Of a DNA stretch of 64,000 nt, positions 41,612 to 55,438 are shown piece after piece. Position numbers and translations under genes: made by a program. Source of the stretch: Dyella sp. C11 (lineage in GTDB: Bacteria; Pseudomonadota; Gammaproteobacteria; Xanthomonadales; Rhodanobacteraceae); NCBI RefSeq assembly GCF_003121485.1, contig NZ_QAVX01000007.1:124001-188000 (forward strand), written 5' to 3'. Under the pieces are notes generated by a model. It searched no databases. It saw only the letters and a program-made list of their open reading frames with translations, and was not told the origin of the DNA. Positions within the stretch are counted from its first letter, which is position 1. Each line of letters begins with the position of its first letter.

Positions 41612-42535
41612 ATGGTGCGCGAAGCGTATGGCAATCGACTCGCTAGCTCGTTCCAGCTGAGCGACCCTCCGACACTGGTGTCGCACACCACTGATCAATA
41701 CCGTCTCGCAGTAACGGAACTGCGGCACGATGCATCGGACTACGGCTTTACGGCACCGATTGCACGAGAGGAGGCCTTTCTCATTGGCCTGCAGCTGCAG
41801 GCTCTCAACAGGCACGAGCTGTGGTTGGATGGAAAATCTGTGCCTGTCCAGCCGATCCTTGCGGGTCAGTCCAGCTTTTTCGATTTGACTCGTGACCCTA
41901 TTGCATACATTGCCGAGCCCTTCCATCCGTTGTTTTTCTATATGCCGCAGGCTGCCATTGATGAGGTTGCGCGCGAGCTAGGTATGAAGCCCGCCACGCT
42001 CATTTGTCGTCATGGCCAACTTGTCGATGATCCGATCATCGAGTCGCTGGGGCGTGCATTGTTGCCGGCTTTGCATGCAACGCCGCTCGGCAATCAATTG
42101 TTTGTCGACCATGCCCTCCTGGCACTGCGTAGTCACCTGGTCCAGAACTACACGGGCGTTCGCGCTCGATGCCCGGCCCATGACAAAGGACTCGCCCCCT
42201 GGCAGGAGCGAGTGGCAAAGGAAATGATACGGGAGCACCTGGTCGATGGCATTGCTTTGGCTACCGTCGCTACAGCTTGCGGACTATCCGCATGCGCTTT
42301 CATCAATGCGTTCAAGCGCAGCACGGGCATGTCTCCGCATCAGTGGCTCATCGAGCGCAGGATCGAGCACGCCGTGGCGCTAATGCGGCAAACGAGTCAT
42401 CCGCTGTCGGACATTGCCTTGGAGGCGGGTTTCGCCGATCAGAGCCACTTTACGCGCGCGTTTGCCGCACGGATGGGAGTCACCCCTGGCACGTGGCGCC
42501 GGAATATCGATAGGCATCAGCTCGGATCGCCGTAA
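41612..42535 (+). CDS. AraC-family transcriptional regulator
   Basis: A 307-residue regulator. The C-terminal ~100 residues hold two HTH units: LATVATACGLSACAFINAFKRSTGMSPHQWLIERRI and PLSDIALEAGFADQSHFTRAFAARMGVTPGTWR. The N-terminal part resembles an AraC_binding_2-like domain without clear ligand residues. GGGGGAGG at 41598-41605 is a strong ribosome site. The upstream leader has two small inverted repeats (GATGTATAGCATC 41525-41537, TCCGAATATCGGA 41551-41563). It precedes the Rrf2 gene on the same strand with 168 bp between. Confidence 0.92.
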   Translation: MVREAYGNRLASSFQLSDPPTLVSHTTDQYRLAVTELRHDASDYGFTAPIAREEAFLIGLQLQALNRHELWLDGKSVPVQPILAGQSSFFDLTRDPIAYIAEPFHPLFFYMPQAAIDEVARELGMKPATLICRHGQLVDDPIIESLGRALLPALHATPLGNQLFVDHALLALRSHLVQNYTGVRARCPAHDKGLAPWQERVAKEMIREHLVDGIALATVATACGLSACAFINAFKRSTGMSPHQWLIERRIEHAVALMRQTSHPLSDIALEAGFADQSHFTRAFAARMGVTPGTWRRNIDRHQLGSP

Positions 42536-42602
42536 CGATGCGCGCGCAAGCTACATACCGTTTCCCCAAACGCGCCAATCAGGCCATTCGGTCCTAAATT
42601 GT

Positions 42603-42619
42603 AAGTATATCAATTACTT
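42603..42619. promoter_or_regulatory. AT-rich inverted repeat upstream of rrf2
   Basis: AAGTA-N7-TACTT at 42603-42619 in an AT-rich stretch about 85-100 bp before the Rrf2 start, within its probable promoter. It is a candidate operator for the Rrf2 or AraC regulator. Confidence 0.35.
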
Positions 42620-42703
42620 GTATTTCTCGCCATGGGTATAAGTGCCGCAATTTAAGACGGTGGCACTTGTCATCCACAACGCGGACAAATAAAGTCCGTG
42701 TTT

Positions 42704-43267
42704 ATGGCACACCTCGGAAATGGCGTTGAATACGGCTTGCATTGCCTGCTCTGGCTAACCGGTAGTCCGGACGAGCGGGCGAGTAGTCGCGACCTTGCGG
42801 ACCTGCAGGGAATTTCTCCTTCTTTCGTTGCGAAGCTGTTTCCGCGATTGGAGAAGGCGGGAATTGTCGAGGCTGGCGAGGGCGTGCGTGGCGGATACCG
42901 ACTGGCCCGCCCGGCTCAACGGATTTCAGTGCTCGACGTTGTCGATGCCATTGAGGGCCCGAAGCCTTTGTTCGAGTGTCAGGAAATTCGCGGTCGATGC
43001 GCCGTATTCGGTGGCAAGCCACCGTCGTGGTCGACCGACGGCGTCTGCAGCGTGCATGCAGTCATGCTTCGTGCGGAACAAGCCATGCGCCGCGAACTGG
43101 CGCGAACCACGCTGGCTGAACTGGCGGCAGTGGCGGGCAAGAAGGCGCCCGAAGGTTTTACGCAGGACATCAGGTCGTGGCTCAACGATCGTTGGGCGGC
43201 GCGCACGGACACGCGGGCGTCAGATACACAGGAAGGGTCGGCAAAGCGCCGCCGACACAAGACGTAA
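42704..43267 (+). CDS. Rrf2-family regulator with three cysteines
   Basis: A 187-residue winged-helix protein of the Rrf2 (IscR/NsrR) family. The HTH region contains RDLADLQGISPSFVAKLFPRLEKAGIVEAGEGVRGGYRLARP. The loop carries Cys92, Cys99 and Cys115 (FECQEIRGRCAVFGG...DGVCSVH), the pattern that can hold an Fe-S cluster, spaced C-x6-C-x15-C rather than IscR's C-x5-C-x5-C. ATG 42704 is used; GTG 42698 would add two residues. The C-terminal ~35 residues are basic. It probably senses oxidants or NO and controls the flavoprotein gene 102 bp downstream. Confidence 0.9.
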   Translation: MAHLGNGVEYGLHCLLWLTGSPDERASSRDLADLQGISPSFVAKLFPRLEKAGIVEAGEGVRGGYRLARPAQRISVLDVVDAIEGPKPLFECQEIRGRCAVFGGKPPSWSTDGVCSVHAVMLRAEQAMRRELARTTLAELAAVAGKKAPEGFTQDIRSWLNDRWAARTDTRASDTQEGSAKRRRHKT

Positions 43268-43369
43268 ATCCGAATCCCCCCAACCCCAAACACGATAGGG
43301 CTTACGCAAGTACGCCTATGCGGCCCCTTGCGCCCCAAAATCGGTTCTGCATTGAAGAGTAGTCACGTC

Positions 43370-44581
43370 ATGAAAAAGCGCATTTTGATCATCGGAGCTG
43401 GTTTTGCCGGCATGTGGAGCGCCCTTGCGGCAGCCCGGGCTTCGAGCCTGGCAGGTAGCGCAGGCGATGCGCTGGAGGTGATGGTGCTCGCACCGGAGCC
43501 TCGCTTGCATGTTCGTCCGCGTCTTTACGAGCACGACCTTTCGGGTGTCGCTCCGTCGCTGGACAAGCTGTTCAAACTCGTGGGCGTTCGTTTCATCACC
43601 GGCTATGTTCAGCGCATCCGGGACGTCGATCAGGCCGTGGATTACATCGATGAAAGCGGTGCGTCCGCCACCATGGCGTTTGACCGGCTCGTATTGGCCA
43701 CCGGAAGCAAGCTGCATATGCCTTCCGTGCCCGGTTTGCGCGAGCACGCCTTCAACGTCGACCAGCTCGCCGATGCGGTGAAACTCGAGGCGCACATGCT
43801 GGCACTCGCCAGTCGTCCTACTACCCTCGCGCGCAATACGCTGATCGTGGTGGGCGGTGGATTTACGGGTATCGAGACGGCAGCCGAAATGCCGGCGCGC
43901 ATGCGCTCCATCCTTGGTGCACATGCTGCCGTCAATGTAATCGTCATCGAACAGGCCGATGCCATCGGGCCGGACCTCGGTGCAGGGCCGCGCCCCGTGA
44001 TTGAACAGGCCTTCCGTGAGATGGGGGTTTCCATGCGCCTGGGCACCTCAGTGGCTTCCATTGATGCGCAGGGCGTTGTGACATCCGCTGGCGAGCGCAT
44101 ACCAAGCGAAACCGTCATCTGGACGGCTGGCGTGCGCGCCAACGGCCTCACGGATCACATTGCGGCTGATCGCGATCGTTTCGGTCGCCTGCATGTCACG
44201 CCGGAGATGCGCGTGCAGGGTTCACAAACGGTGTACGCCACTGGCGACGTGGCGATGGCTGCCACCGACGATGCGGGTAATGTGACGATGATGTCATGCC
44301 AGCACGCGATGAACATGGGCCGCTCTGCGGGTCATAACGTTGCCGCCGAACTGCTGGGCCTCCCGATGCTGCCGTATAGCCAGCCCAAATACGTGACCTG
44401 CCTGGATCTTGGCCCCTGGGGCGCCGTCTATACCGAGGGGTGGGATCGCGAAGTGAAATTGGTTGGCGCTGAGGCCAAGGCGCTGAAGCAGAAGATCAAC
44501 ACCGAGTGGATCTATCCGCCGAGCGACGACCGCGAAGAGGCCCTGGCTGCTGCGGATCCCGCTCGTATCGTGGTGGCCTGA
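43370..44581 (+). CDS. NDH-2-like FAD/NAD(P)H oxidoreductase
   Basis: A 403-residue flavoprotein with the FAD motif LIIGAGFAGMWSAL (~5-18), the NAD(P)H motif IVVGGGFTGIETAAE (~165-179) and the third FAD-binding VYATGDVAMA (Asp of FAD O3). Similar to type II NADH dehydrogenases or pyridine nucleotide-disulfide reductases but without the C-terminal membrane helix of Ndh, so a soluble role is possible. It follows the Rrf2 gene and likely belongs to that regulon. ATG 43370 is used (GTCATGAAAAAGCG), preceded by GAAGAG. Confidence 0.9.
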   Translation: MKKRILIIGAGFAGMWSALAAARASSLAGSAGDALEVMVLAPEPRLHVRPRLYEHDLSGVAPSLDKLFKLVGVRFITGYVQRIRDVDQAVDYIDESGASATMAFDRLVLATGSKLHMPSVPGLREHAFNVDQLADAVKLEAHMLALASRPTTLARNTLIVVGGGFTGIETAAEMPARMRSILGAHAAVNVIVIEQADAIGPDLGAGPRPVIEQAFREMGVSMRLGTSVASIDAQGVVTSAGERIPSETVIWTAGVRANGLTDHIAADRDRFGRLHVTPEMRVQGSQTVYATGDVAMAATDDAGNVTMMSCQHAMNMGRSAGHNVAAELLGLPMLPYSQPKYVTCLDLGPWGAVYTEGWDREVKLVGAEAKALKQKINTEWIYPPSDDREEALAAADPARIVVA

Positions 44582-44717
44582 GGAAGTTATGGCTCCGACG
44601 GATCGCGGGCGCGCGTAGCGCAGGCTGAGTGAATTTCCATCAAGGCGGCCGCCGAATGTTCAATGAATTCAGCGGCCGGTTCCCTATGTTTGTGTTGCCT
44701 TGATGGCGACCCAGATG

Positions 44718-44737
44718 CGCGCTCCATGTGGAGCGCG
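44718..44737. terminator. Hairpin between flavoprotein and cupin genes
   Basis: CGCGCTCCA, loop TG, TGGAGCGCG, followed by TTT, in the 222-bp gap. A second, weaker pair (GGCGGCCGC/GCGGCC) lies at about 44644-44685. Terminator function is uncertain. Confidence 0.4.
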
Positions 44738-44803
44738 TTTCGACGCCCTGTGCTGGCGTTGGCTGTCGCCTCGGGGCCATGTCGACTTGCTACGGAGTGT
44801 CCC

Positions 44804-45232
44804 ATGAAGAAACAGCTTTGTTTGCTGGCTGCCCTATTTGCCATCTCCCTCGCTTGCCTTGCCGATACCGTTCCGGCGACCACGGGGCATGCAAGCCAGG
44901 AAACCGTGCAGCCCGCGTTCGCGCACGCGCTTCCTAACGCCCCTGGGAAAAAGCTTGTTGGTGTACTGGTGACCTACACGCCTGGCGGAACGTCCAAACC
45001 GCACCGGCACGGAGACGCATTCGTGGTGGGTTACGTACTCAGTGGCGAGATACGTAGCCAGCTAGCGGACGGCAGCTCACGGGTTTATCACGCCGGTGAG
45101 AGCTGGAGCGAAAGCCCTGGCGCGCACCACGTAGTCAGCGAGAACGCGAGCAAGACCGAGCCAGCAAGCTTGCTGGCCATTTTTGTGGTCGATGCGAACC
45201 AGAAGGATCTGGTGACCTACGACACACCTTGA
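44804..45232 (+). CDS. Exported cupin protein
   Basis: A 142-residue single cupin barrel with a signal peptide (MKKQLCLLAALFAISLACLA, cleavage ~20-21). Cupin motif 1 reads SKPHRHGDAFVVGYVLSGE (metal His-His-Asp/Glu) and motif 2 has SPGAHHVVSENAS. The family binds a metal and small ligand; function unknown. A possible lipobox (SLAC) near residue 17 leaves export as a lipoprotein open. It precedes aceE by 13 bp and is probably co-transcribed with it. Confidence 0.85.
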   Translation: MKKQLCLLAALFAISLACLADTVPATTGHASQETVQPAFAHALPNAPGKKLVGVLVTYTPGGTSKPHRHGDAFVVGYVLSGEIRSQLADGSSRVYHAGESWSESPGAHHVVSENASKTEPASLLAIFVVDANQKDLVTYDTP

Positions 45233-45245
45233 GTCGGTATAGGCC

Positions 45246-47939
45246 ATGGAAAAAGAAAGTGCGCCCAGCCCCAGTGATATCGATCCTTCCGAGACCAGTG
45301 AATGGGTTGAATCGTTAGGTGCGGTGATCCATCACGATGGGCCTGATCGGGCTCGTTATCTGCTGGATCGAATGATCAATTCAGCACGTCGCGTGGGCAC
45401 GTTGCTGCCGTTGCAAACGGCCAGCGACTATGTGAACACCATTCCTGCGGGCAGTGAAGTGCCTAGTCCTGGTGATGCCGCGATGGAGTGGCGCATACGG
45501 TCCATCATTCGATGGAACGCCATGGCCATGGTCGTGCGAGCCAACAGGAAGCCCGGTGATCTGGGCGGCCATATCTCCAGCTTTGCTTCGTCCGCCACCC
45601 TGTACGACGTGGGCTTCAACCACTTCTTTCGTGCGCCGAGCCAAGGACATCCTGGCGACCTGATTTTTACTCAGGGACACTCAAGCCCAGGCATCTATGC
45701 CAGGTCCTTCCTTGAGGGGCGAATCAGTGCCGAACAGCTTGACCTGTTCCGCATGGAAGTGGCCGGAGCCGGGAAAGGGCTCTCCTCGTATCCACACCCC
45801 TGGTTGATGCCTGATTACTGGCAGGTGGCCACCGTGTCGATGGGGCTTGGGCCTATTCAAGCCATCTACCAGGCGCATTTCTGGAAGTACCTGGAGCACC
45901 GCGGGCTGATTGCCCCCAGCGACAGGAAGGTCTGGTGCTTCCTGGGTGACGGCGAGCTGGACGAGCCAGAATCTCTGGGTGCGATTTCACTCGCTGGTCG
46001 CGAAAACCTGGACAACCTCATTTTCGTCGTCAACTGCAATCTCCAGCGGTTGGATGGCCCGGTGCGGGGCAACGGCAAAATCATCCAGGAGGCTGAGGGT
46101 GCCTTTGTTGGCGCAGGCTGGAACGCGATCAAGGTGATCTGGGGCGCTCGATGGGATCCGCTACTTGAACGCGATACGTCCGGGCGGCTTAGGCAACTGA
46201 TGATGGAAACCGTGGACGGTGACTATCAGGCGTTCAAGGCATTGGGCGGCGCCTATACGCGCGAACATTTCTTTGGTCGGTATCCGGAGACAGCAGCACT
46301 GGTCGCTGACATGTCCGATGAGGATCTCGAGCACTTAAATCGTGGCGGCCACGATCCGCAAAAGGTCTATGCGGCCTACCACGCAGCTGTTCATACCGAA
46401 GGGCAACCTACGGTGATTCTGGCCAAGACCGTGAAGGGCTATGGCATGGGTGAGGCGCTGCAGGCGCAAAACCCCACCCACAACAAGAAAAAGATGGACG
46501 ATGACGCGATACGCCTTCTGCGTGATCGCTTGCGCATTCCCATTCCCGACAGTGAGCTGGCCGACGTTCCGTATTACCACCCAGGTGAGGACTCGCCCGA
46601 GGTGCGGTACATCAAGGAGCGCCGGCAGAAGCTTGGTGGTTTTCTCCCTCAGCGCCGACGCAAGGCGGACGAGACCCTGAAGGCACCGGACCTTTCGGCA
46701 TTCGAACAGATAACGCAAGGCACGGGAGATCGTGAAGTCTCCACCACCATGGCGTTTGTCCGCGGTGTAAACCTGCTGTTGCGTGATCAAGCGCTTGGCC
46801 CGCGCCTGGTGCCCGTGATTGCGGACGAGGCGCGTACATTCGGTATGGAAGGACTATTCCGGCAGATTGGTATCTATGCGCCTTTCGGGCAGAAGTATCG
46901 TCCGCAGGATGCAGACCAACTTCTGTATTACCGCGAAGACAAGCAAGGCCAGGTGCTGCAGGAAGGCATTTCCGAGGCCGGTGGTATGTCCGCATGGATT
47001 GCCGCGGGCACAAGCTACAGCGTCAGCAACGTGGCCATGTTGCCACTCTTCTTCTATTACGCCATGTTCGGCTTTCAGCGTGTGGGTGACCTTTGCTGGG
47101 CTGCGGCAGACATGCGTGCACGCGGCTTTCTTGTGGGCGGCACATCCGGACGAACAACTATCAATGGCGAAGGACTTCAGCATGAAGATGGCCATTCGCA
47201 TCTCATGTCCGGGGCCATCCCTAATGTCGTCTCGTACGACCCGACGTTCTCGTATGAAGTGGCCGTGATCCTGCAGGATGGCGTGCGCCGGATGATGCAG
47301 GAGCAGGAGGACGTGTACTACTACGTCACCGTCCTCAATGAAAATTACCCTCATCCCGATATGCCGGCAGGAAGCGCCGATGGCATTCTCAAGGGCATGT
47401 ACCTCTTCAAGGATGCCGGCGAGCCCATTGCAGGAGAAAAGCGGGTGCAGCTGCTTGGGGCGGGAGCGATTCTTCGCGAAGTCATCGCTGCGGCGCAGCT
47501 GCTTGAAAAGGATTTCGGTGTGCGCGCGGATGTCTGGTCGGTGCCCAGTTTCAGCGAGGTGCGACGGGACGGCTATGACGTCGAACGATGGAACCGCTTG
47601 CACCGCGATCAGTCAGCACGTGTTTCATATGTCGCTGGATTGCTGCAGGGCAGGGACGGGCCCATTGTCGCAGCGACAGACTACGTGCGCGCGCTACCAG
47701 ATCAGATTCGACCATTCTTGCCTGCAGGTCGGCACTACACGGTACTGGGTACAGACGGCTTCGGTCGCAGTGATACCCGCGCTAATCTTCGTGCTTTTTT
47801 TGAGGTTGACCGGTTTTGGATTGCGCACGCTGCCTTGGATGCGCTGGTTGCCAACGGGCAGATGGATCATGGTGAGCTTGGGCGCGCCATGAAGCTCTAT
47901 GGCATCAATCCCAGCAAGCCAGAGCCATGGACGCAATGA
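45246..47939 (+). CDS. aceE: Pyruvate dehydrogenase E1, homodimeric AceE type
   Basis: Large single-chain E1 of 897 residues, close to E. coli AceE (887). Features: GHISSFASSATLYDVGFNHFF near 107-127, ThDP motif GDGELDEPES...NCNLQRLDGPVRGNG, SYPHPW with the active-site His and the C-terminal GRSDTRANLRAFFEVD. Unlike the housekeeping arrangement, no aceF or lpd gene follows, so E2 and E3 would have to come from elsewhere. It ends up in a cluster with Rrf2, flavoprotein and cupin genes. Codon use is less GC-biased than in pdhA-C. ATG 45246 is used. Confidence 0.93.
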   Translation: MEKESAPSPSDIDPSETSEWVESLGAVIHHDGPDRARYLLDRMINSARRVGTLLPLQTASDYVNTIPAGSEVPSPGDAAMEWRIRSIIRWNAMAMVVRANRKPGDLGGHISSFASSATLYDVGFNHFFRAPSQGHPGDLIFTQGHSSPGIYARSFLEGRISAEQLDLFRMEVAGAGKGLSSYPHPWLMPDYWQVATVSMGLGPIQAIYQAHFWKYLEHRGLIAPSDRKVWCFLGDGELDEPESLGAISLAGRENLDNLIFVVNCNLQRLDGPVRGNGKIIQEAEGAFVGAGWNAIKVIWGARWDPLLERDTSGRLRQLMMETVDGDYQAFKALGGAYTREHFFGRYPETAALVADMSDEDLEHLNRGGHDPQKVYAAYHAAVHTEGQPTVILAKTVKGYGMGEALQAQNPTHNKKKMDDDAIRLLRDRLRIPIPDSELADVPYYHPGEDSPEVRYIKERRQKLGGFLPQRRRKADETLKAPDLSAFEQITQGTGDREVSTTMAFVRGVNLLLRDQALGPRLVPVIADEARTFGMEGLFRQIGIYAPFGQKYRPQDADQLLYYREDKQGQVLQEGISEAGGMSAWIAAGTSYSVSNVAMLPLFFYYAMFGFQRVGDLCWAAADMRARGFLVGGTSGRTTINGEGLQHEDGHSHLMSGAIPNVVSYDPTFSYEVAVILQDGVRRMMQEQEDVYYYVTVLNENYPHPDMPAGSADGILKGMYLFKDAGEPIAGEKRVQLLGAGAILREVIAAAQLLEKDFGVRADVWSVPSFSEVRRDGYDVERWNRLHRDQSARVSYVAGLLQGRDGPIVAATDYVRALPDQIRPFLPAGRHYTVLGTDGFGRSDTRANLRAFFEVDRFWIAHAALDALVANGQMDHGELGRAMKLYGINPSKPEPWTQ

Positions 47940-48027
47940 CATCGGCGTTGCGATTGACTGGCGTCGAATTCACCGCTCGAAGCAGCGTGAAGACAACGTC
48001 CCAGCGGTAGTTAGAATGTACAAGTTT

Positions 48028-48117: not shown

Positions 48118-49581
48118 ATGTTCAGACAAAGATCTCTGGTTGTGCTCGGATTTCCCTTGCTGCTGGCGGCTTGCGTCAGCAGCAAGGGCCTTCATCCGCA
48201 ATCGGCTCTGCTACAACCATCCGATGTGCATGCAGCAGCCGAGCTTAAGCAGCTGCGCACTGCCGAGGCTTCGTGGCCAGCGCCGAATTGGTGGACAGGC
48301 TTTGGCGACGAACAGCTCAATGAACTGATCGCTCGCGCGCTCGCGAATAACCCAGATGTCGCGATCGCCGATGCGCATCTTCGCGAAGCTCGCGCAAGAG
48401 TGGAATTTGCTGACGCGGCGCGTGGTCCTGATATCAATGCAACGGCGCAAGCTGCTGGCATGTACCTCCCCACGACATTGCCGCCCCCTGTGGGCATCGG
48501 TCACTACATACTTGAAAAACATGTCGACGCCGGGCTTCACTGGGACCTTGACCTATGGGGTGGCAAACGCGCTGCATGGGAAGCTGCGCTGGGGCGGACG
48601 CAAGTAGTCGAAGCCGAGCGACAAGCCACGCTGATCGCGGTGTCCACCAACGTCGCCAGACTGTACCTGCAGCTTGGTCATGCCTTCATTACATTGGACA
48701 TAGCCAACCAGGAGCTGGATCGCGCGACACATAGTCAGGCATTGACGCGCCAGCGTGTGAATGCAGGTATCGACGGTAATACGCAGTTACGGCTGATCGA
48801 TGCAGAGGTAGCCAGCGACCGCGAGCGTGTAACGGCCTCTGCGCGTGACATTGAGGCAAAGCGCTCCGCCTTGGCCGTGCTGCTTGGTGAAGGACCCGAC
48901 AGTGGCTTGGTGTTGCAGCGCCCGAGGGCACTTGCTCCACTCGACGTAGCGGTTCCATCCACCCTCCCTGTCGAGTTGATTGGGCGACGAGCAGACCTGA
49001 CGGCCGCGCGCTGGCAGGTCGAAGCTTCATCGAAGGATATCGTCGAGGCGAAGGCAGAGTTCGTGCCGAATGTCAGTCTCGGTGTATTGGCAGGCTTCGT
49101 TGCACTCGGCGGAACGAATGTGTTTCAGCTGCCGGCGCGGTTCTACCAAGTGGCGCCTTCAGTGAGCCTTCCCATCTACGACGGTGGTCGCCGACGCGCC
49201 GAGCTCTCCAGCCGGGACGCCCAGTATGACGTGGCCGTAGCCCAATATAACGCGACGCTCATTCGCTCCATCAATGAAGTCACTGACCAATTGTCCGCCC
49301 TTCAATCGCTTGACCAGCAGGTGGTCGAACAGCAGGCGGCCTATCTGGCCTCCGGCGATGCGTGGAAGCTTGCCGAGCAGCGGTATCGCGCAGGCGTAGG
49401 CAGCTTCCTGGACACATTGGTGGCGCGTCAGCAGCTGTTGGTGGCCGAACGCCATCGAGCAGATCTACTCGCTCAACAAGTGGATAGCTCCATCTTGCTG
49501 GTTCAGGCCCTGGGCGGAGGATATCGCCCTGGCAGCAACCAAGCCCCGTCCCTTTCGGAAAATCTGCGAGGAACGCCATGA
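48118..49581 (+). CDS. NodT-family outer-membrane efflux factor
   Basis: A 487-residue TolC-like outer membrane channel. Signal with lipobox LLLAAC (Cys ~19), so the protein is lipidated, as in OprM/NodT types. Two OEP repeats follow with the WWTGFGDEQLNELIARALANNPD motif and LFGRRADLTAARWQVEASSKDIVEAKAEFVPN-like halves, and coiled coils between. ATG 48118; the stop overlaps the emrA ATG by four bases. It forms the outer part of a tripartite pump with the next two genes. Confidence 0.93.
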   Translation: MFRQRSLVVLGFPLLLAACVSSKGLHPQSALLQPSDVHAAAELKQLRTAEASWPAPNWWTGFGDEQLNELIARALANNPDVAIADAHLREARARVEFADAARGPDINATAQAAGMYLPTTLPPPVGIGHYILEKHVDAGLHWDLDLWGGKRAAWEAALGRTQVVEAERQATLIAVSTNVARLYLQLGHAFITLDIANQELDRATHSQALTRQRVNAGIDGNTQLRLIDAEVASDRERVTASARDIEAKRSALAVLLGEGPDSGLVLQRPRALAPLDVAVPSTLPVELIGRRADLTAARWQVEASSKDIVEAKAEFVPNVSLGVLAGFVALGGTNVFQLPARFYQVAPSVSLPIYDGGRRRAELSSRDAQYDVAVAQYNATLIRSINEVTDQLSALQSLDQQVVEQQAAYLASGDAWKLAEQRYRAGVGSFLDTLVARQQLLVAERHRADLLAQQVDSSILLVQALGGGYRPGSNQAPSLSENLRGTP

Positions 49582-50777
49582 GCGGCGAACCAGAGTCCAC
49601 CAACGTAGCATCAACCACGTCTTCTCCTCGCCGTCGCTGGCTGATGCGTGGCGTGCTGTTGCTTGTAGTGATAGGCGCGATAGGTGGCGTGATTTGGTAT
49701 CTCGCCATTGGGCGTTGGCATGAAGGCACCGATGATGCCTACGTCAGCGGCAATATCGTGCAAATCACATCACAAGTGACAGGCACCGTGACATTGATTG
49801 GTGCGGACGATGGCGACCTCGTGCACAAGGGTGACTTGCTGGTGCGCCTGGACCGGGCGGATGCAGACGTGGCACTGGAGCGCGCCAAGGCGGATCTGGC
49901 GAGTACTGTGCGTCGCGTGCGCGGTCTATATACCAATGCATCTGGTGCTGCGTCAGAAGTGGCGTTAAGCAGGGTCGCACTGGATCGCGCCAAGAAGGAC
50001 TACGAGCGTCGTCGTGACCTGGCCAAGTCAGGCGCAATTTCCAGTGAGGAGCTCGCCCACGCCCAGGACACCTTGCTGTCTGCCGAGAATGCGTTGGCCA
50101 CCGCGGCGCAGCGCTTTAGTACCAGCAAGGTTCTTGTTGACGATACCGTAGTTGCATCGCATCCGGATGTGCTGGCTGCCGCTGCGAGGCTGCGCGCAAG
50201 TTATCTGGATGACGTACGCACCGACATCCTAGCTCCTGTGACTGGCTACGTAGCCAAACGCAGTGTGCAACTGGGACAGCGCTCGCAGCCTGGCAATGCG
50301 CTGATGGCTGTCGTGCCGCTGCGCGAAGTCTGGGTGGATGCCAATTTCAAGGAAACCCAGCTGCTGCATATGCGCATTGGGCAGCCAGTTTCGGTGAAGG
50401 CTGATGTCTACGGGGGCGAGGTTGACTACGAGGCCGTAATCCAGAGTCTTGGCGTAGGAACGGGTAGTGCTTTTTCTCTTCTTCCGGCGCAAAACGCGAC
50501 GGGTAACTGGATCAAGATCGTCCAGCGCATTCCCGTGCGCGTGCGCTTTATCAAGCCGGAGCAACTGGATGCCCATCCCCTGCGGATAGGCGTGTCAACG
50601 GTTGTGGAGGTAAATCTGCATGATCAAACCGGTGCTTGGCTTCCTGCACAAAGCCCTGCCGTTCCCATTCTTTCCACGGATATCTACCAACGGCAGCTGG
50701 CTGACGCCCAGGCGTTGATTGACGGCATCGTCCACGCCAATACCCCGGTTGGCAGCGCGGCATCCGGCACGAACTGA
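49578..50777 (+). CDS. emrA: EmrA/HlyD-family membrane fusion protein
   Basis: Periplasmic adaptor, 399 residues, with one N-terminal TM (LLLVVIGAIGGVIWYLAI, ~25-42). Then come a lipoyl-type half motif (TDDAYVSGNIVQITSQVTGTV), a long coiled coil (~100-205) and the second half (ILAPVTGYVAKRSVQLGQ), finishing in a beta-barrel region with VDANFKETQL. These are EmrA features. It joins the inner-membrane pump EmrB to the outer-membrane factor. The four-base overlap with the previous gene shows coupling. Confidence 0.93.
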   Translation: MSGEPESTNVASTTSSPRRRWLMRGVLLLVVIGAIGGVIWYLAIGRWHEGTDDAYVSGNIVQITSQVTGTVTLIGADDGDLVHKGDLLVRLDRADADVALERAKADLASTVRRVRGLYTNASGAASEVALSRVALDRAKKDYERRRDLAKSGAISSEELAHAQDTLLSAENALATAAQRFSTSKVLVDDTVVASHPDVLAAAARLRASYLDDVRTDILAPVTGYVAKRSVQLGQRSQPGNALMAVVPLREVWVDANFKETQLLHMRIGQPVSVKADVYGGEVDYEAVIQSLGVGTGSAFSLLPAQNATGNWIKIVQRIPVRVRFIKPEQLDAHPLRIGVSTVVEVNLHDQTGAWLPAQSPAVPILSTDIYQRQLADAQALIDGIVHANTPVGSAASGTN

Positions 50778-50816
50778 CCTCGTCTTGAACGAACTATCAC
50801 CGCAACGTGAGCGATC

Positions 50817-52337
50817 ATGAGCGAACCATTCCGACCACCCAATCTCGCGCTGGCGACGCTCAGCCTGTCGCTCGCTACGTTCATGCAGGTGCTCGACACC
50901 ACGATTGCCAACGTCTCCCTTCCGACGATTGCCGGCAACCTTGGAGTGAGCGCGAATCAAAGTACGTGGGTTATCACATCGTTCGCAGTGAGCAACGCTA
51001 TCGCGCTTCCGCTTACGGGGTTCATGACGCGACGATTTGGTGAGACGCGCCTGTTCGTATGGTCGACGCTGCTCTTTTCCCTGGCGTCGTTCCTGTGTGG
51101 AACTGCTCAGACGATGAGCATGCTTATCCTGTTTCGCGCGTTACAGGGAGCCGTTGCCGGGCCGATGTATCCAATTACGCAGAGCCTGCTCATTTCGATA
51201 TACCCGCCACACAAACGCGGCATGGCGCTGGCTCTTTTTGCCATGGTTACCGTGGTGGCGCCAATCGCTGGACCCATTCTTGGCGGGTGGATTACCGATG
51301 ACTACACCTGGCCGTGGATCTTCTTCATCAACGTGCCTATCGGTATCTTTGCCAGTCTCACGGTCGCCTCGCAGATGAAGGGGCGAGTGGAGCCTACCAG
51401 TCGACCGAAGGTGGACTATGTCGGGCTCATCACGCTGGTTATCGGTGTGGGGACGTTGCAGGTCGTGCTGGATAAGGGGAATGACGAAGACTGGTTCAAC
51501 TCCACGTTTATCGTGGAAATGGCCATTGTCTCGGCTATCGCTATCGCCGTCTTCCTTATCTGGGAGCTTACCGATAAGGAGCCGATCGTTAATCTGAGGC
51601 TGTTCCGGCATCGAAATTTCAGCATGGGCACATTGGCGTTGGTACTCGGCTACGCTGCGTTCTTTGCGATCAACGTGCTTGTGCCGCAGTGGCTGCAGCG
51701 CAATCTGGGGTACACAGCGACGTGGGCGGGTTTTGCGACGGCGCCGCTGGGCATTTTGCCCGTGATACTTACGCCCTTTGTTGGTCGCTACGCGCCACGT
51801 TTCGATCTGCGCGCACTCGCCGGCTTCGCCTTCCTCGTGCTTGGAGGGACCTGCCTGATGCGATCCTATTTCTATATAGGCATCGATTTTCGCCACGTTG
51901 CGCTGGTGCAGCTTTTGCAGGGCCTGGGCGTCGCATTCTTCTTCGCGCCGGTGCTGACCATTCTCCTCTCTGACCTTGCCCCGACGGAGATAGCCGATGG
52001 TGCGGGACTGGCAACATTCTTGCGCACCTTAGGGGCCAGTTTTGCCGCATCACTGACCAACTTCTTATGGGATCACCGGGCCATCGTGCATCACGAACGC
52101 CTGGGTGAGCATGTCACCGTTTACGACCCCTCGACCGTAGCAGCGATGTCCGACCTGGGTGGCAAACAGGATGCTATAGCCATGATCAACCAGACCATCA
52201 CCCAGCAGGCCTACCAGCTGTCGTTCAATGAGGTATTTCACCTGCTGGGATGGATATTTCTTGCACTGATCGCTGTTGTCTGGCTGGCCAAGCCACCGTT
52301 CGAACCCAAGGCGGGCATGGCATCGGGCGGTCACTGA
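50817..52337 (+). CDS. emrB: EmrB-type DHA2 multidrug exporter
   Basis: Proton-driven 14-helix inner-membrane exporter, 506 residues. DHA2 motifs: FMQVLDTTIANVSLPTIAG in TM1, TRRFGETRLF motif A, GPILGGWITDDYTWPWIFFINVPIG motif C in TM5. Long C-terminal tail ends ...KPPFEPKAGMASGGH. With the two preceding genes it gives a complete tripartite pump for hydrophobic toxicants; actual substrates unknown. A 39-bp gap after emrA. Convergent with the AraC gene at 52361. Confidence 0.94.
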   Translation: MSEPFRPPNLALATLSLSLATFMQVLDTTIANVSLPTIAGNLGVSANQSTWVITSFAVSNAIALPLTGFMTRRFGETRLFVWSTLLFSLASFLCGTAQTMSMLILFRALQGAVAGPMYPITQSLLISIYPPHKRGMALALFAMVTVVAPIAGPILGGWITDDYTWPWIFFINVPIGIFASLTVASQMKGRVEPTSRPKVDYVGLITLVIGVGTLQVVLDKGNDEDWFNSTFIVEMAIVSAIAIAVFLIWELTDKEPIVNLRLFRHRNFSMGTLALVLGYAAFFAINVLVPQWLQRNLGYTATWAGFATAPLGILPVILTPFVGRYAPRFDLRALAGFAFLVLGGTCLMRSYFYIGIDFRHVALVQLLQGLGVAFFFAPVLTILLSDLAPTEIADGAGLATFLRTLGASFAASLTNFLWDHRAIVHHERLGEHVTVYDPSTVAAMSDLGGKQDAIAMINQTITQQAYQLSFNEVFHLLGWIFLALIAVVWLAKPPFEPKAGMASGGH

Positions 52338-52360: not shown

Positions 52361-53212
52361 TTACAGGTCGCCATTCTCTCCGCTACCTGCGCCATCTCGG
52401 GCCAGTCGCCGCGCTTCGGCAGGCGATCTTCCGCGTAAACGCCGGAAGGATTTCGCGAAATGGGAAGGGTCCTTGAATCCTGCGCGCTTGCCGATTTCCG
52501 CAAGGGAAAGAATGGAAAGATTCGGAGAGGCCAGCATGCGCTCAGCCAACCGGATGCGCGCATGGACCAGCAGCACTCCAAAGTTATCGCCTCTGTTGGC
52601 TAGCGCGCGATGCAATGTGCGTGCCGACACGCCAAGGTTGCGTGAGACATCGGCAACCGAGAGCGTGGCTTCCGAACATCGTTCTTGTATGCGGGCCCGA
52701 GCGCGCTCACAGAGGTCATTGGGCAGCATGAACGGCTTGGCTCCCGGCAAATCCCTCTCGGCAATGAGGGCCAGCAGGGTGCCAATCTGTTCGGCCAGCG
52801 CTGCGGGTGAGACTGGGCCCGAGCGAACAAGATCCAACGTCCACTGCGCCAGGAAGGCATTCAACGCCTCGCTCCATTTGCAGGGGGCGCGCGTGGGCTC
52901 GCCCAGCAGTCGTCGCGGGGACTGAACTCGGGCAAGCAGCCAGTCGGTAGGGACATTCCAATGCATGATTCCCGCAGACTGTTCTATGGAGAATCGCTTG
53001 AAATCGCGTTCATCGAGCAGGACGGCTTCGCCGGTGCTGAGGACTCGATGTTTCACGCCGGGGAGCATGCGAGGCACCCCGTGGTTGAATAGCAGATGGT
53101 GGCGCTCCCCCACAGTAGAGCCTCTCTCTTGAGAGGGAGTCTTGCCTGCAGGTGTTCTATAAACGAACGTCAACGGGCCTGCGGCGACGCTGTACATACC
53201 CGTGTCTGGCAT
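52361..53212 (-). CDS. AraC-family regulator (second of the region)
   Basis: A 283-residue regulator with the two-HTH domain at the C-terminus: LSVADVSRNLGVSARTLHRALANRGDNFGVLLVHARI and LAEIGKRAGFKDPSHFAKSFRRLRGRSPAEARR. The N-terminal ~170 residues hold a ligand-type region like AraC_binding_2. It ends 23 bp past the convergent emrB and starts five bases after the stop of the next AraC gene, so the pair is one transcript. It is a likely controller of the efflux operon, but that is inference. Confidence 0.92.
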   Translation of the reverse strand: MPDTGMYSVAAGPLTFVYRTPAGKTPSQERGSTVGERHHLLFNHGVPRMLPGVKHRVLSTGEAVLLDERDFKRFSIEQSAGIMHWNVPTDWLLARVQSPRRLLGEPTRAPCKWSEALNAFLAQWTLDLVRSGPVSPAALAEQIGTLLALIAERDLPGAKPFMLPNDLCERARARIQERCSEATLSVADVSRNLGVSARTLHRALANRGDNFGVLLVHARIRLAERMLASPNLSILSLAEIGKRAGFKDPSHFAKSFRRLRGRSPAEARRLARDGAGSGENGDL

Positions 53213-53217
53213 GAGGA

Positions 53218-54192
53218 TTATGGGTCTTGTTCGCCAGGCGTTGCGCGCAGCTGGGATGGCAGATGCCCCGTCCGCTTTCGAATGACTCTCGTAAAATACG
53301 CGGGATCAGCGAAGCCGCAACGGCGACCAATCTCCGCTGCAGTGAAACGCCTGGCCATAGGCGACAGAAGCATCTGCTTTGCCTGTTCGACGCGCGCATC
53401 CATCAGTACCTGTGCGAATGTCACGCCACATGCGCGTAATGCTGCATGCATGATGTGCTCTGGCACGCCGAGTGCCGCAGAGATATGTGCGGAAGTAAGA
53501 TTGGGTTCGCTGCAGCGCTGCGTGATGATGTCTTGCGCTTTGGCCTTCAACGCGCGTTGAACCATGGTCGGGCGTTCCGAGATGCCATTCATCTCATGCG
53601 CCACTTGCGCCAATAGAGCTCCTACCTGATCCACGAAAAGCCGGCTAGGCAGCGATGAGTTCGACACAACTTCCGGGGACAATGCGCTGACGAAAGTCGA
53701 AAGCGCTCGCCCCCAGCCGACATCGCGACTGATGACTCGACCAACCAGCAGATTTGGGTTTGGAATCCATTGGCGCAACCATGACTCGGAGATCTGAAGG
53801 TTGACGATATCGTATGGATCGTGGTCCAGCTCGAACGGAAGAAGAGAGTCTGTCAATACGGCGTCACCAGTTCTCAACAGCATCCGGTTGCGTTGAAAGA
53901 ATCGCCACTCTGATGCCAGGTTGATCACGAGATTGATGCTTCGCCCCGTGCTGAGCCCCAATTCGCGCTTTCGCCGCAGTGAACGATGTTTACTCCCCTG
54001 CATGCGAAATAGAGTGACTGGCCCAAGCTCTGTAAAGATGGCGCCGGCATTGAGCGGGCCAGGGGTGTCACAAATCACCTCCATGGGGATCAAGCTTCCG
54101 GCCAGTGCGGAAACGTAGTACTCGTAACGCTGAGATTCGGGCACGTCGAGTGTTGACCAGCGATGTACTAGCCCTGGAGATTCGTTGGTCAT
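53218..54192 (-). CDS. AraC-family regulator (third of the region)
   Basis: A 324-residue regulator. HTH domain: LTSAHISAALGVPEHIMHAALRACGVTFAQVLMDARVEQAKQML and FTAAEIGRRCGFADPAYFTRVIRKRTGHLPSQLR. The N-terminus (SESQ-like DVPESQRYEYYVSALAGSLIPMEV) is the AraC_binding_2-like input domain. ATG 54192 is chosen; a longer frame to 54249 adds no coding character. It is the upstream member of a two-gene AraC operon with the gene at 52361; both resemble each other in layout but not strongly in sequence, so this is an old duplication if any. Confidence 0.9.
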   Translation of the reverse strand: MTNESPGLVHRWSTLDVPESQRYEYYVSALAGSLIPMEVICDTPGPLNAGAIFTELGPVTLFRMQGSKHRSLRRKRELGLSTGRSINLVINLASEWRFFQRNRMLLRTGDAVLTDSLLPFELDHDPYDIVNLQISESWLRQWIPNPNLLVGRVISRDVGWGRALSTFVSALSPEVVSNSSLPSRLFVDQVGALLAQVAHEMNGISERPTMVQRALKAKAQDIITQRCSEPNLTSAHISAALGVPEHIMHAALRACGVTFAQVLMDARVEQAKQMLLSPMARRFTAAEIGRRCGFADPAYFTRVIRKRTGHLPSQLRATPGEQDP

Positions 54193-54264
54193 AGTGTCAT
54201 TCCGCGTTATGCGTGCAGTGCGAATGCACGTCCCTTCATCAGAATACAAACACAGCTTAGCGCG

Positions 54265-55071
54265 TTACGGAAATTGGCGCCGATAGTTGCCTGGCGTTAT
54301 CCGTTGCACCTGGAAAAAGCTTCGGCAGAGATGGCTTTGGTCCGAAAAACCAGCCTCCTGTGCGATTTCGGTAAGGGGGCGTCTCGTCTCTCGAATTAGC
54401 AGCGCCGCCATCGCAACACGACGCTGGACAATGTACTTGTGAGGTGGAACACCAGTACTCAGGCGAAACGCCCGGATAAAGCTTCCCACGGACAAGCGTG
54501 TCAGGGCCGCCAGCTCGGGTAACTGGATTTTCTCGCCCAAGTGCCGCTCGATATAGCCTTGCACCTTGACGAGCGCGGCAGGCGAAAGAGCCCCTGGCGG
54601 CGACGTGATCATGCCAGCCCCTTGCGCCCCGGAGGCTGGCGACTTGCCGCGAACGAGCCCATTTAGTGCATCGACCAAGGCCTGGGCCGGTCCTGGAGTG
54701 GCTTCGCGAGCGGATGTGGGGCTCAGTGAAGGGTCGACGTCCGGGAAAGATACGCGCACGGTGACGAGTAGCTGGATCACAGCGAAATGGCCGCCGCGCA
54801 GGCCTTCGTCGGCTTCGCCCTCGTTAGCCAATGGGCTCACGTGCGCGTGGTCAATACTGATGGCGAGCCGGGCTTGATCTTGGTCGCTTGCCGCAGGCCC
54901 GGTGCCGTGTGAGGCGAGCTTGCCGAGCTCGGACAGGACAAGTGCGATTTTCCCTGCCTGCTGCGCCAGGGCTGCGGCGGGAGCGATATCGGGTCCTTGG
55001 CGAGCGAAGGTCCTGCTGGAGGATCCAGTCGCTCGGTAGGCGGCGTAAGTTATAGGGGCCTGTGGTGTCAT
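54265..55071 (-). CDS. AraC-family regulator (fourth of the region)
   Basis: About 268 residues from ATG 55071; frames further upstream (to 55302) look untranslated. The C-terminal domain has LPELAALTRLSVGSFIRAFRLSTGVPPHKYIVQRRV and PLTEIAQEAGFSDQSHLCRSFFQVQRITPGNYRR, a typical AraC pair. The N-terminal half is Ala/Ser-rich with an HFAVIQLLVTVRVSFP segment and no recognised ligand domain. No Shine-Dalgarno is clear, so the start is moderately uncertain. It is 72 bp from the next AraC gene on the same strand. Confidence 0.85.
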   Translation of the reverse strand: MTPQAPITYAAYRATGSSSRTFARQGPDIAPAAALAQQAGKIALVLSELGKLASHGTGPAASDQDQARLAISIDHAHVSPLANEGEADEGLRGGHFAVIQLLVTVRVSFPDVDPSLSPTSAREATPGPAQALVDALNGLVRGKSPASGAQGAGMITSPPGALSPAALVKVQGYIERHLGEKIQLPELAALTRLSVGSFIRAFRLSTGVPPHKYIVQRRVAMAALLIRETRRPLTEIAQEAGFSDQSHLCRSFFQVQRITPGNYRRQFP

Positions 55072-55438
55072 GGGGGGCAGGCGCTGTTGTTTGGTCACCC
55101 CTAGCTTCGCGAGAATTTGGTGAGAAACATGGACCGGAAAACGGCCTACTGCCAATAAATCCGGTCTCTGCGCGCCACGGATGTGCCAACCCCTCGTTAC
55201 GGTTAACTCACAGGTTATGGTGCCAGGACAGGTATGGCGCGGCCTCTCACGTCCCGTATTTGGGCCCGCGACTGGCCTGATGCCGGCCCGGAACATGCAC
55301 ACGCCGACATCGAATTCCTGCGCTCGGGATGTACTGAAACGCTCCTATAGACGGCGCGCAAGATTTTGCCTTAGGTTGTAAGAAAGCGCGTTCCGCTCAG
55401 TGCCGCGCTAATTGCCAAACATGTCCTGGGGTCGCTTG
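55072..55438. other. Intergenic region, divergent promoters
   Basis: About 370 bp between the divergent AraC and response regulator genes. It is less GC-rich, includes GGTTAACTCACAGGTTATGG and AAGATTTTGCCTTAGGTTG, and has no gene, repeat or RNA that I recognise. Confidence 0.5.

What the first reader, a model, noticed from the sequence alone, without database searches (positions are those of the whole stretch)
42603..47939. Orphan AceE in an Rrf2-flavoprotein-cupin cluster
A second, homodimeric pyruvate dehydrogenase E1 lies 20 kb from a separate heterotetrameric E1 operon, without E2 or E3. Upstream are a cysteine Rrf2 regulator, an NDH-2-like flavoprotein and an exported cupin. A redox-controlled bypass of pyruvate oxidation is a testable idea: Rrf2 would switch on AceE and an NADH oxidase under oxidant stress, when the regular complex is damaged. 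No known system fits exactly.
Basis: inference. Interest (0 to 1): 0.6.

Follow-up and report, generated by a model that had tools for sequence, protein, structure and literature searches.

The report
Mobile island with spare pyruvate dehydrogenase
A soil bacterium carries a second, well-conserved copy of the first enzyme of pyruvate oxidation inside a transferable gene cluster for pumping out and reducing toxic compounds, which suggests that some bacteria import spare central-metabolism parts together with their detoxification genes.

Summary
The genes are real: Rrf2, an NDH-2-related flavoprotein, an exported cupin and a full-length homodimeric PDH E1, AceE2 (45246-47939), in a Dyella genome. 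Its lack of a neighbouring E2/E3 means little: core aceE also lies about 20 kb from aceF-lpd. AceE2 is an extra copy, from an accessory AceE clade found in 6 of 197 family genomes (lower bound). All 6 have a related AraC gene and a cupin within about 10 kb; efflux genes are nearby in 4, NAD(P)H- or quinone-reductase genes in 5; in 2 its ORF overlaps a second nuoF, not found in the other genomes at the threshold used. The cluster has low GC and sits at different sites: a mobile island. Rrf2 keeps RsrR's four [2Fe-2S] ligand positions, with a moderately supported operator at its own promoter only. A by-eye motif before cupin-aceE2 and OMF-emrAB, and a genome that lost rrf2 and most of the flavoprotein but kept the rest, point to AraC rather than Rrf2 as AceE2's regulator. 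Best reading: AceE2 replaces E1 in the ordinary PDH complex during stress by a redox-active or electrophilic toxin. Anatomy is well supported; toxin, regulator and function are inferred.

The parts
41612..42535 (+). AraC-family regulator, conserved partner of accessory AceE
   Evidence: HTH_18 9e-25; relatives at E<=1e-90 in 8 of 197 family genomes, including all 6 with accessory AceE
42678..42702 (+). 25-bp inverted repeat, putative RsrR-type operator of the rrf2 promoter
   Evidence: best PWM site in the window with 11 comparison sites, 0 of 100 shuffles reach it; without the nearest training site 7 of 100; rank 2 and 25 of 100 when the two nearest are dropped
42704..43267 (+). Rrf2-family regulator, RsrR-like
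   Evidence: best PDB relative 6hsd; E9, H13, C92, C115 align with RsrR E8, H12, C90, C110
43370..44581 (+). NDH-2-related NAD(P)H flavoprotein (ORF opens at 43328; likely ATG 43370)
   Evidence: quinone-site motif reads CQHAMN instead of the recalled NDH-2 AQxAxQ
44655..44663 (+). AATGTTCAA motif upstream of cupin-aceE2, putative AraC site
   Evidence: same place in G019 and G011
44804..45232 (+). exported single-domain cupin (ORF opens at 44663; likely ATG 44804)
   Evidence: Cupin_2 5e-14; 13 bp before aceE2
45246..47939 (+). AceE2, accessory homodimeric pyruvate dehydrogenase E1
   Evidence: TIGR00759 1429 bits; separate 100%-supported clade; Ka/Ks 0.03-0.04 in the two Dyella pairs where computable
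48015..48023 (+). AATGTACAA motif upstream of OMF-emrAB, putative AraC site
   Evidence: same place in G019 and G011
48118..49581 (+). NodT-type outer-membrane efflux channel
   Evidence: TIGR01845 374.6 bits, cut-off 210
49578..50777 (+). EmrA-like membrane-fusion protein
   Evidence: NF011715 414 bits, below its cut-off of 563
50817..52337 (+). EmrB-like MFS efflux permease
   Evidence: TIGR00711 485.6 bits, cut-off 230
52361..55302 (-). three AraC-type regulators (52361-53212, 53218-54249, 54265-55302), right side of the island
   Evidence: relatives at the same place in D. silvae and G019 (the third cut off by the end of the G019 stretch)

Best explanation
AceE2 is a catalytically competent, alternative E1 of the ordinary pyruvate dehydrogenase complex, carried by a horizontally acquired, AraC-controlled detoxification island. 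A hydrophobic redox-active or electrophilic compound (quinone- or phenazine-like) would be sensed by AraC, which turns on cupin-aceE2 and the OMF-EmrA-EmrB pump; AceE2 would dock on the AceF-Lpd core and keep acetyl-CoA flowing while the core E1 is impaired or short. Beside it, the RsrR-like Rrf2 would sense redox state through a [2Fe-2S] cluster and control itself and the NDH-2-like flavoprotein. Shown by sequence: intact enzyme, clade, recurring partners, mobility, Rrf2 ligand positions, motif positions. Inferred: activity, docking to AceF, AraC as activator, cluster binding by Rrf2, the toxin class, the benefit of AceE2.
For: Accessory clade with 100% FastTree support, nested in Rhodanobacteraceae AceE, in 6 of 197 genomes that each keep a core aceE. 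The catalytic-loop segments and the N-terminal segment inspected (residues 1-60, 100-150, 225-262, 395-425, 515-575) resemble core AceE. Purifying selection, Ka/Ks 0.033 and 0.042 in two Dyella pairs with nearly saturated Ks, third pair saturated. One AceF-type E2 in the genome: of 3 E2-domain genes, one is AceF, one SucB, one belongs to the E1alpha/beta operon. AraC and a cupin within about 10 kb in 6 of 6; EmrA-type efflux genes in 4 of 6; WrbA in G040, G178 and G096, NDH-2-like flavoprotein in G000 and G019; second nuoF whose ORF overlaps aceE2 by 13 bases in G040 and G178, the only two of 197 genomes with two nuoF matches at E<=1e-180 (183 of 197 had one or more). AAYGTNCAA before cupin and before OMF in three Dyella and twice in the cupin/WrbA intergenic stretch of G178 and of G040. 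Low GC and GC3, different sites in G019 and G011, left flank intact without the island following in G009, G001 and G019.
Against: No expression, binding or toxin data. The AraC motif was found by eye from these same regions, occurs 3 times in 64 kb (2.6 expected, one of the 3 inside the cupin), also at unrelated places in other loci, and G096 has none. E2 docking is inferred only from N-terminal similarity. No residue signature in AceE2 points to resistance: I recognise no catalytic residue among its 36 clade differences, and Cys changes are not uniform. EmrAB substrate classes are recalled, not tested. G040 and G178 show no EmrAB relative in the 20 kb examined. The enzymes next to aceE2 differ between genera, so the common function is uncertain.
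Confidence: 0.45

Rival explanations
1. One reading: Rrf2 directly switches on flavoprotein, cupin and AceE2 as a redox bypass of pyruvate oxidation; AceE2 is read through from the rrf2 promoter.
For: Same strand; Rrf2 keeps RsrR's Fe-S ligand positions; an operator-like repeat sits at its promoter; RsrR class 1 targets in Streptomyces include nuo and a quinone oxidoreductase (PMC5015018, passages).
Against: No second operator-like site before cupin or aceE2; 222 bp between flavoprotein and cupin with a conserved upstream element; G011 keeps cupin-aceE2-emrAB without rrf2 or intact flavoprotein; 4 of 6 accessory-aceE clusters lack the Rrf2-flavoprotein pair in the stretches examined.
Confidence: 0.15
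2. AceE2 is a substrate variant (e.g. 2-oxobutyrate or another 2-oxoacid) used to degrade a compound handled by the island, not a PDH backup.
For: In G178 and G040 it lies with Zn-ADH and ALDH genes, in G178 also a Phenol_MetA_deg protein and in G040 an SDR, as in a catabolic cluster; NCBIfam TIGR03186, named alpha-ketoglutarate dehydrogenase, describes AceE-like proteins with another substrate and scores AceE2 highly.
Against: AceE2 scores below the TIGR03186 cut-off (1292 against 1408) and higher on TIGR00759, as core AceE does; it is nested within core AceE; the inspected active-site segments resemble core.
Confidence: 0.15
3. AceE2 is a dosage copy or passenger that was caught in a mobile efflux island and has no specific role in it.
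For: Cluster composition varies; mobile; other second AceE copies exist, e.g. a 59-61% identical lineage in 7 genomes and a pair in G119.
Against: Association of the clade with related AraC and cupin genes across three genera, purifying selection, overlap with a second nuoF.
Confidence: 0.2

Closest known systems
AceE, homodimeric PDH E1 (TIGR00759; E. coli 1L8A)
   Same: full length; inspected active-site loops and N-terminal segment alike
   Different: extra copy in a mobile AraC/efflux island; longer branches than core
RsrR, [2Fe-2S] Rrf2 regulator of Streptomyces venezuelae
   Same: Glu/His/Cys/Cys ligand positions aligned; 25-bp inverted repeat of similar layout at its own promoter
   Different: neighbour is an NDH-2-like flavoprotein rather than NmrA; two more cysteines (C14, C99); cluster binding untested; RsrR's own sites score only 9.5 and 8.9 with the matrix built here
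Rrf2-flavoprotein-EmrAB-OMF-cupin stretch of Cupriavidus metallidurans CH34 megaplasmid
   Same: related genes for Rrf2, flavoprotein, EmrB, EmrA, OMF and a cupin within 13 kb
   Different: gene order differs and no aceE there; the megaplasmid's aceE relative lies about 48 kb away without these genes in 9 kb on either side
EmrAB-TolC type tripartite efflux
   Same: OMF, fusion protein and MFS permease adjacent
   Different: EmrA- and EmrB-specific NCBIfam cut-offs not reached; coupled to a spare AceE

Membership tests
Homodimeric PDH E1 (AceE) | full-length TIGR00759 match above cut-off | tested here: met
   1429.4 bits against 859.9, residues 9-896
Homodimeric PDH E1 (AceE) | ThDP/Mg and catalytic-loop segments, N-terminal E2-docking segment kept | tested here: met
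   segments 1-60, 100-150, 225-262, 395-425, 515-575 compared with 6 core AceE of the same genomes and 10 distant ones; that these segments matter, and the E401 numbering, are recalled. The E401-equivalent is Q in the three Dyella copies and L128, E in L135 and L161
Homodimeric PDH E1 (AceE) | PDH activity with AceF-Lpd | not testable with these tools
   needs a bench assay
TIGR03186 (AceE-like, named alpha-ketoglutarate dehydrogenase) | score above the family cut-off | tested here: not met
   1292.2 bits against 1408.3
RsrR-type Rrf2 | Glu, His, Cys, Cys at the [2Fe-2S] ligand positions | tested here: met
   aligned to chain 6hsd at E8, H12, C90, C110; present in 8 of 8 sequences aligned, the window's included. 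Residue roles recalled; the title of Volbeda 2019 (reference list) names Cys, Glu and His
RsrR-type Rrf2 | binds a [2Fe-2S] cluster | not testable with these tools
   needs purified protein
RsrR-type Rrf2 | 11-3-11 bp inverted-repeat operator at its own promoter | tested here: inconclusive
   25-bp inverted repeat at 42678-42702 ranks first with 11 training sites, second when the two nearest are dropped; two RsrR sites score 9.5 and 8.9, at chance level for that matrix
NDH-2 | flavoprotein alignable over its length to solved NDH-2 | tested here: met
   4nwz, 1.9e-26, residues 4-382 of 403
NDH-2 | AQxAxQ quinone-site motif (recalled) | tested here: not met
   reads CQHAMN opposite AQIAIQ of 4nwz; so called NDH-2-like only
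EmrAB-type efflux | adjacent OMF, EmrA-like and DHA2 MFS genes | tested here: met
   48118-52337

The most novel reading that the evidence does not exclude
A mobile AraC regulon that swaps in toxin-tolerant copies of central-metabolism subunits: the PDH E1 in six Rhodanobacteraceae and, in two of them, also the NADH-oxidising NuoF of complex I. Both hold reduced intermediates (enamine-ThDP, reduced FMN) that a redox-active antibiotic can rob, so the island would combine efflux, quinone reduction and 'electron-thief-proof' spare parts.
Probability: 0.2. Interest if true: 0.75.

Novelty: new variant of a known kind. Interest (0 to 1): 0.5.

Why it matters
Resistance by importing a tolerant copy of a drug target is known for some antibiotics (recalled), but I recall no case for PDH E1 or NuoF. 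If AceE2 and NuoF2 are tolerant spares, PDH E1 and the complex I NADH site would be real targets of natural redox-active toxins in soil, and the island would be a ready source of tolerant enzymes and of a sensor for the toxin. Even as a plain backup, it shows central-carbon enzyme subunits travelling with efflux islands.

Tried and rejected
Rejected: that absence of E2/E3 is notable (core aceE is likewise 19.9 kb from aceF-lpd; my notes say 22 kb, which was measured between domain hits). Rejected: AceE2 as a TIGR03186 member. Tried without gain, from search listings only: aceE paralogues, aceE with self-resistance or efflux, Rrf2-cupin-oxidoreductase-quinone-EmrAB, Dyella-phenazine-resistance, PDH and pyocyanin reduction, EmrAB-AraC-quinone-aceE, aceE-nuoF-paralog-efflux pump-redox-active (no paper at 4 of 5 terms): nothing in the titles and abstract starts listed describes this cluster. 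Plasmid-borne aceE: 8 of the 20 records listed were opened; 7 are annotated, 6 of these show aceE-aceF-lpdA, and the seventh, C. necator pBB2, shows a lone aceE. A uniform loss of cysteines in AceE2 as a thiol-resistance signature was looked for and not found. Sigma-70 and terminator scans were no better than shuffles. The RsrR-layout pattern was written after seeing the site, and 1.14 matches at up to 2 mismatches are expected by chance, so it is no independent test. Searches (GC3; synonymous differences) used a wrong frame for flavoprotein and cupin, and one search also for core aceE; the values used are. An AT-rich imperfect palindrome near 42586-42620 between AraC and Rrf2 has no explanation.
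Full report
What is there. The window lies in a Dyella genome (4.73 Mb, 46 contigs). The genus follows because genome G011 of the same genus group has a contig of the same length, with the same AceE2 protein, as Dyella silvae RLT163. The reported genes are real: Rrf2 42704-43267, NDH-2-related flavoprotein 43370-44581, exported cupin 44804-45232, AceE 45246-47939.

The 'orphan' is ordinary, the paralogue is not. The genome holds two homodimeric E1 genes. The core aceE (contig 11) stands between a malic-enzyme/phosphotransacetylase fusion gene and a ubiM-type gene, 19.9 kb from aceF-lpd, so separation from E2/E3 is usual here. Three genes with the E2 catalytic domain are in the genome: AceF, SucB and the E2 of the E1alpha/beta operon. 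Of 20 genomes of the genus examined, 19 have core aceE (the other, G004, is 86% complete) and 3 also have AceE2 at 87-100% identity. In 197 genomes of the family 15 had two matches at E<=1e-200. In a 147-row tree, second copies of 6 (G000, G011, G019, G178, G040, G096) form one clade with 100% support; 7 form another, 59-61% identical group, G115's is a 53% outlier, and G119's two copies pair with each other. Only fetched loci were placed on the tree, so 6 is a lower bound; 11 of the 197 had no match at that threshold, all of them 89% complete or less.

Recurring company. All 6 accessory copies have a related AraC gene and a cupin within about 10 kb. AraC relatives at E<=1e-90 occur in 8 of 197 genomes: these 6 plus G017 and G170 (at most 11 candidates scored per genome). 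A search of 398 genomes of the order gave 9 at E<=1e-85, all in this family (at most 5 candidates scored per genome; G019 is not among its matches, so it was either not drawn or missed). G096's cupin is weak (48%, E 6e-24; not among the matches). G000 and G019 add Rrf2 and the flavoprotein, and all three Dyella have OMF-EmrA-EmrB. G096 has patatin, OMF, EmrA-like and MFS genes, WrbA quinone reductase and then aceE2 on one strand. G178 and G040 both have cupin, Zn-ADH, aceE2, a second nuoF whose ORF overlaps aceE2 by 13 bases, WrbA, ALDH and patatin genes; an SDR close to that of G096 is in G040, a Phenol_MetA_deg protein in G178. At E<=1e-180, 183 of 197 genomes had a nuoF match and only G040 and G178 had two. 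NuoF2 of both differs at 24 aligned positions that are near-invariant in the 28 core NuoF fetched (the best-scoring ones of that search), including a Cys-to-Ser change beside the GEET segment.

Mobile island. GC is 57-62% from 42 to 59 kb against 61-66% in the 8 kb to the left; GC3 of the cluster genes is 0.62-0.71 against 0.84-0.91 for six neighbours or E1/E2 genes and 0.87 for core aceE. The left flank GAPDH-OsmC-S1/P1 nuclease is intact in G009, G001 and G019 with no cluster gene in the following 15 kb; in G019 the cluster lies elsewhere on the chromosome, and in G011 on a different contig from the nuclease. Synonymous sites of the cluster genes differ by 0.61-0.80 between the window and G019 or G011, while core aceE pairs of these genomes have Ks 0.20-0.39. 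Codon bias in the core gene contributes to that contrast.

The enzyme. AceE2 keeps the inspected active-site and N-terminal segments and evolves under purifying selection (Ka/Ks 0.033 and 0.042, with Ks 1.7-2.1 and so rough; the third Dyella pair was saturated). Thirty-six positions invariant in 33 chosen core copies differ in at least 5 of the 6 accessory ones; I recognise no catalytic residue among them, but had no structure-based list to check. The likely role is E1 of the same complex; docking to AceF is inferred.

Who controls it. Rrf2 is closest in the PDB to RsrR (6hsd, 6e-28), with E9, H13, C92 and C115 opposite RsrR E8, H12, C90 and C110; these are present in 8 of 8 sequences aligned, along with two more cysteines. 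In S. venezuelae RsrR binds 11-3-11 bp repeats, is thought to regulate itself, and its class 1 sites include nuo and a quinone oxidoreductase; only the divergent sven6562 changed clearly in the mutant (PMC5015018, passages). A repeat of similar layout stands at 42678-42702. With 11 sites from related Rrf2/flavoprotein loci it is the best in 64 kb and 0 of 100 shuffles reach it; without the G019 site 7 of 100 do; without G019 and the Microvirga site it ranks second and 25 of 100 do. The two RsrR sites themselves score 9.5 and 8.9 with this matrix, at the level of chance maxima. So support rests on near relatives and position. No comparable site precedes cupin, aceE2 or OMF. Instead AAYGTNCAA stands before cupin and before OMF in all three Dyella, twice in the cupin/WrbA intergenic stretch of G178 and of G040, just before WrbA in G170 and before an SDR in G017; G096 has none. 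It also lies at the 5' end of the ALDH ORF in G178 and G040, where the real start may be further down, and at a few places inside other genes. The motif was picked by eye and occurs 3 times in the window (one inside the cupin) against 2.6 expected, so it is a lead. G011 lacks Rrf2 and keeps only a C-terminal flavoprotein remnant, yet keeps the rest.

How it may work. Compounds that take electrons from reduced intermediates could strike both E1 and the NADH site of complex I. E1's enamine does reduce the dye DCPIP, and paracatalytic inactivation is mentioned for human E1b (PMC2663715, passages). A regulon that brings efflux, quinone reductases and spare copies of these subunits fits such a threat. 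The compound, the AraC effector and any tolerance of AceE2 are not known. Simple backup, another substrate, or passenger status remain possible.

Compared with what is known. The Rrf2-flavoprotein pair also occurs on plasmids (Microvirga with a cupin; Pseudomonas pA4J1; B. arboris and S. fredii replicons), and C. metallidurans CH34 has Rrf2, flavoprotein, EmrAB, OMF and a cupin within 13 kb. What I have not seen described, in the listings, is a transferable accessory AceE with such a set.

Noticed in passing
L171:8621-9961 (-) and L173:11657-13003 (+): Second nuoF whose ORF overlaps the end of accessory aceE in G178 and G040, the only 2 of 197 genomes with two nuoF matches at E<=1e-180. Changes near the FMN/NADH segment, e.g. 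Cys to Ser beside GEET.
   Followed up: partly
L035:11340-11740: Dyella silvae (G011) has lost Rrf2 and most of the flavoprotein between AraC and cupin; a C-terminal remnant of the flavoprotein is left: a natural deletion.
   Followed up: yes
L254:4222-13206: C. metallidurans CH34 megaplasmid: AraC-like, flavoprotein, Rrf2, EmrB, EmrA, OMF and cupin together, with inverted-repeat operator candidates at flavoprotein and rrf2.
   Followed up: partly
L182:8574-10355: G019 carries a second Rrf2-flavoprotein pair elsewhere, arranged tail to tail, with a perfect-arm inverted repeat before the flavoprotein.
   Followed up: partly
L163-L169: A different second AceE lineage, 59-61% identical, in 7 of 197 family genomes; two of its loci (L180, L181) held none of the island's AraC, cupin, Rrf2 or efflux relatives.
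   Followed up: partly
L253:2801-4869: A 10.6-kb Pseudomonas plasmid (pA4J1) carries a divergent Rrf2-flavoprotein pair.
   Followed up: no
L171:6250 and L173:17530: The AraC-type motif also lies at the 5' end of the ALDH ORF in both genomes; possibly a further operator.
   Followed up: no
window 42586-42620: AT-rich imperfect palindrome between AraC and Rrf2, not the RsrR-like operator.
   Followed up: no
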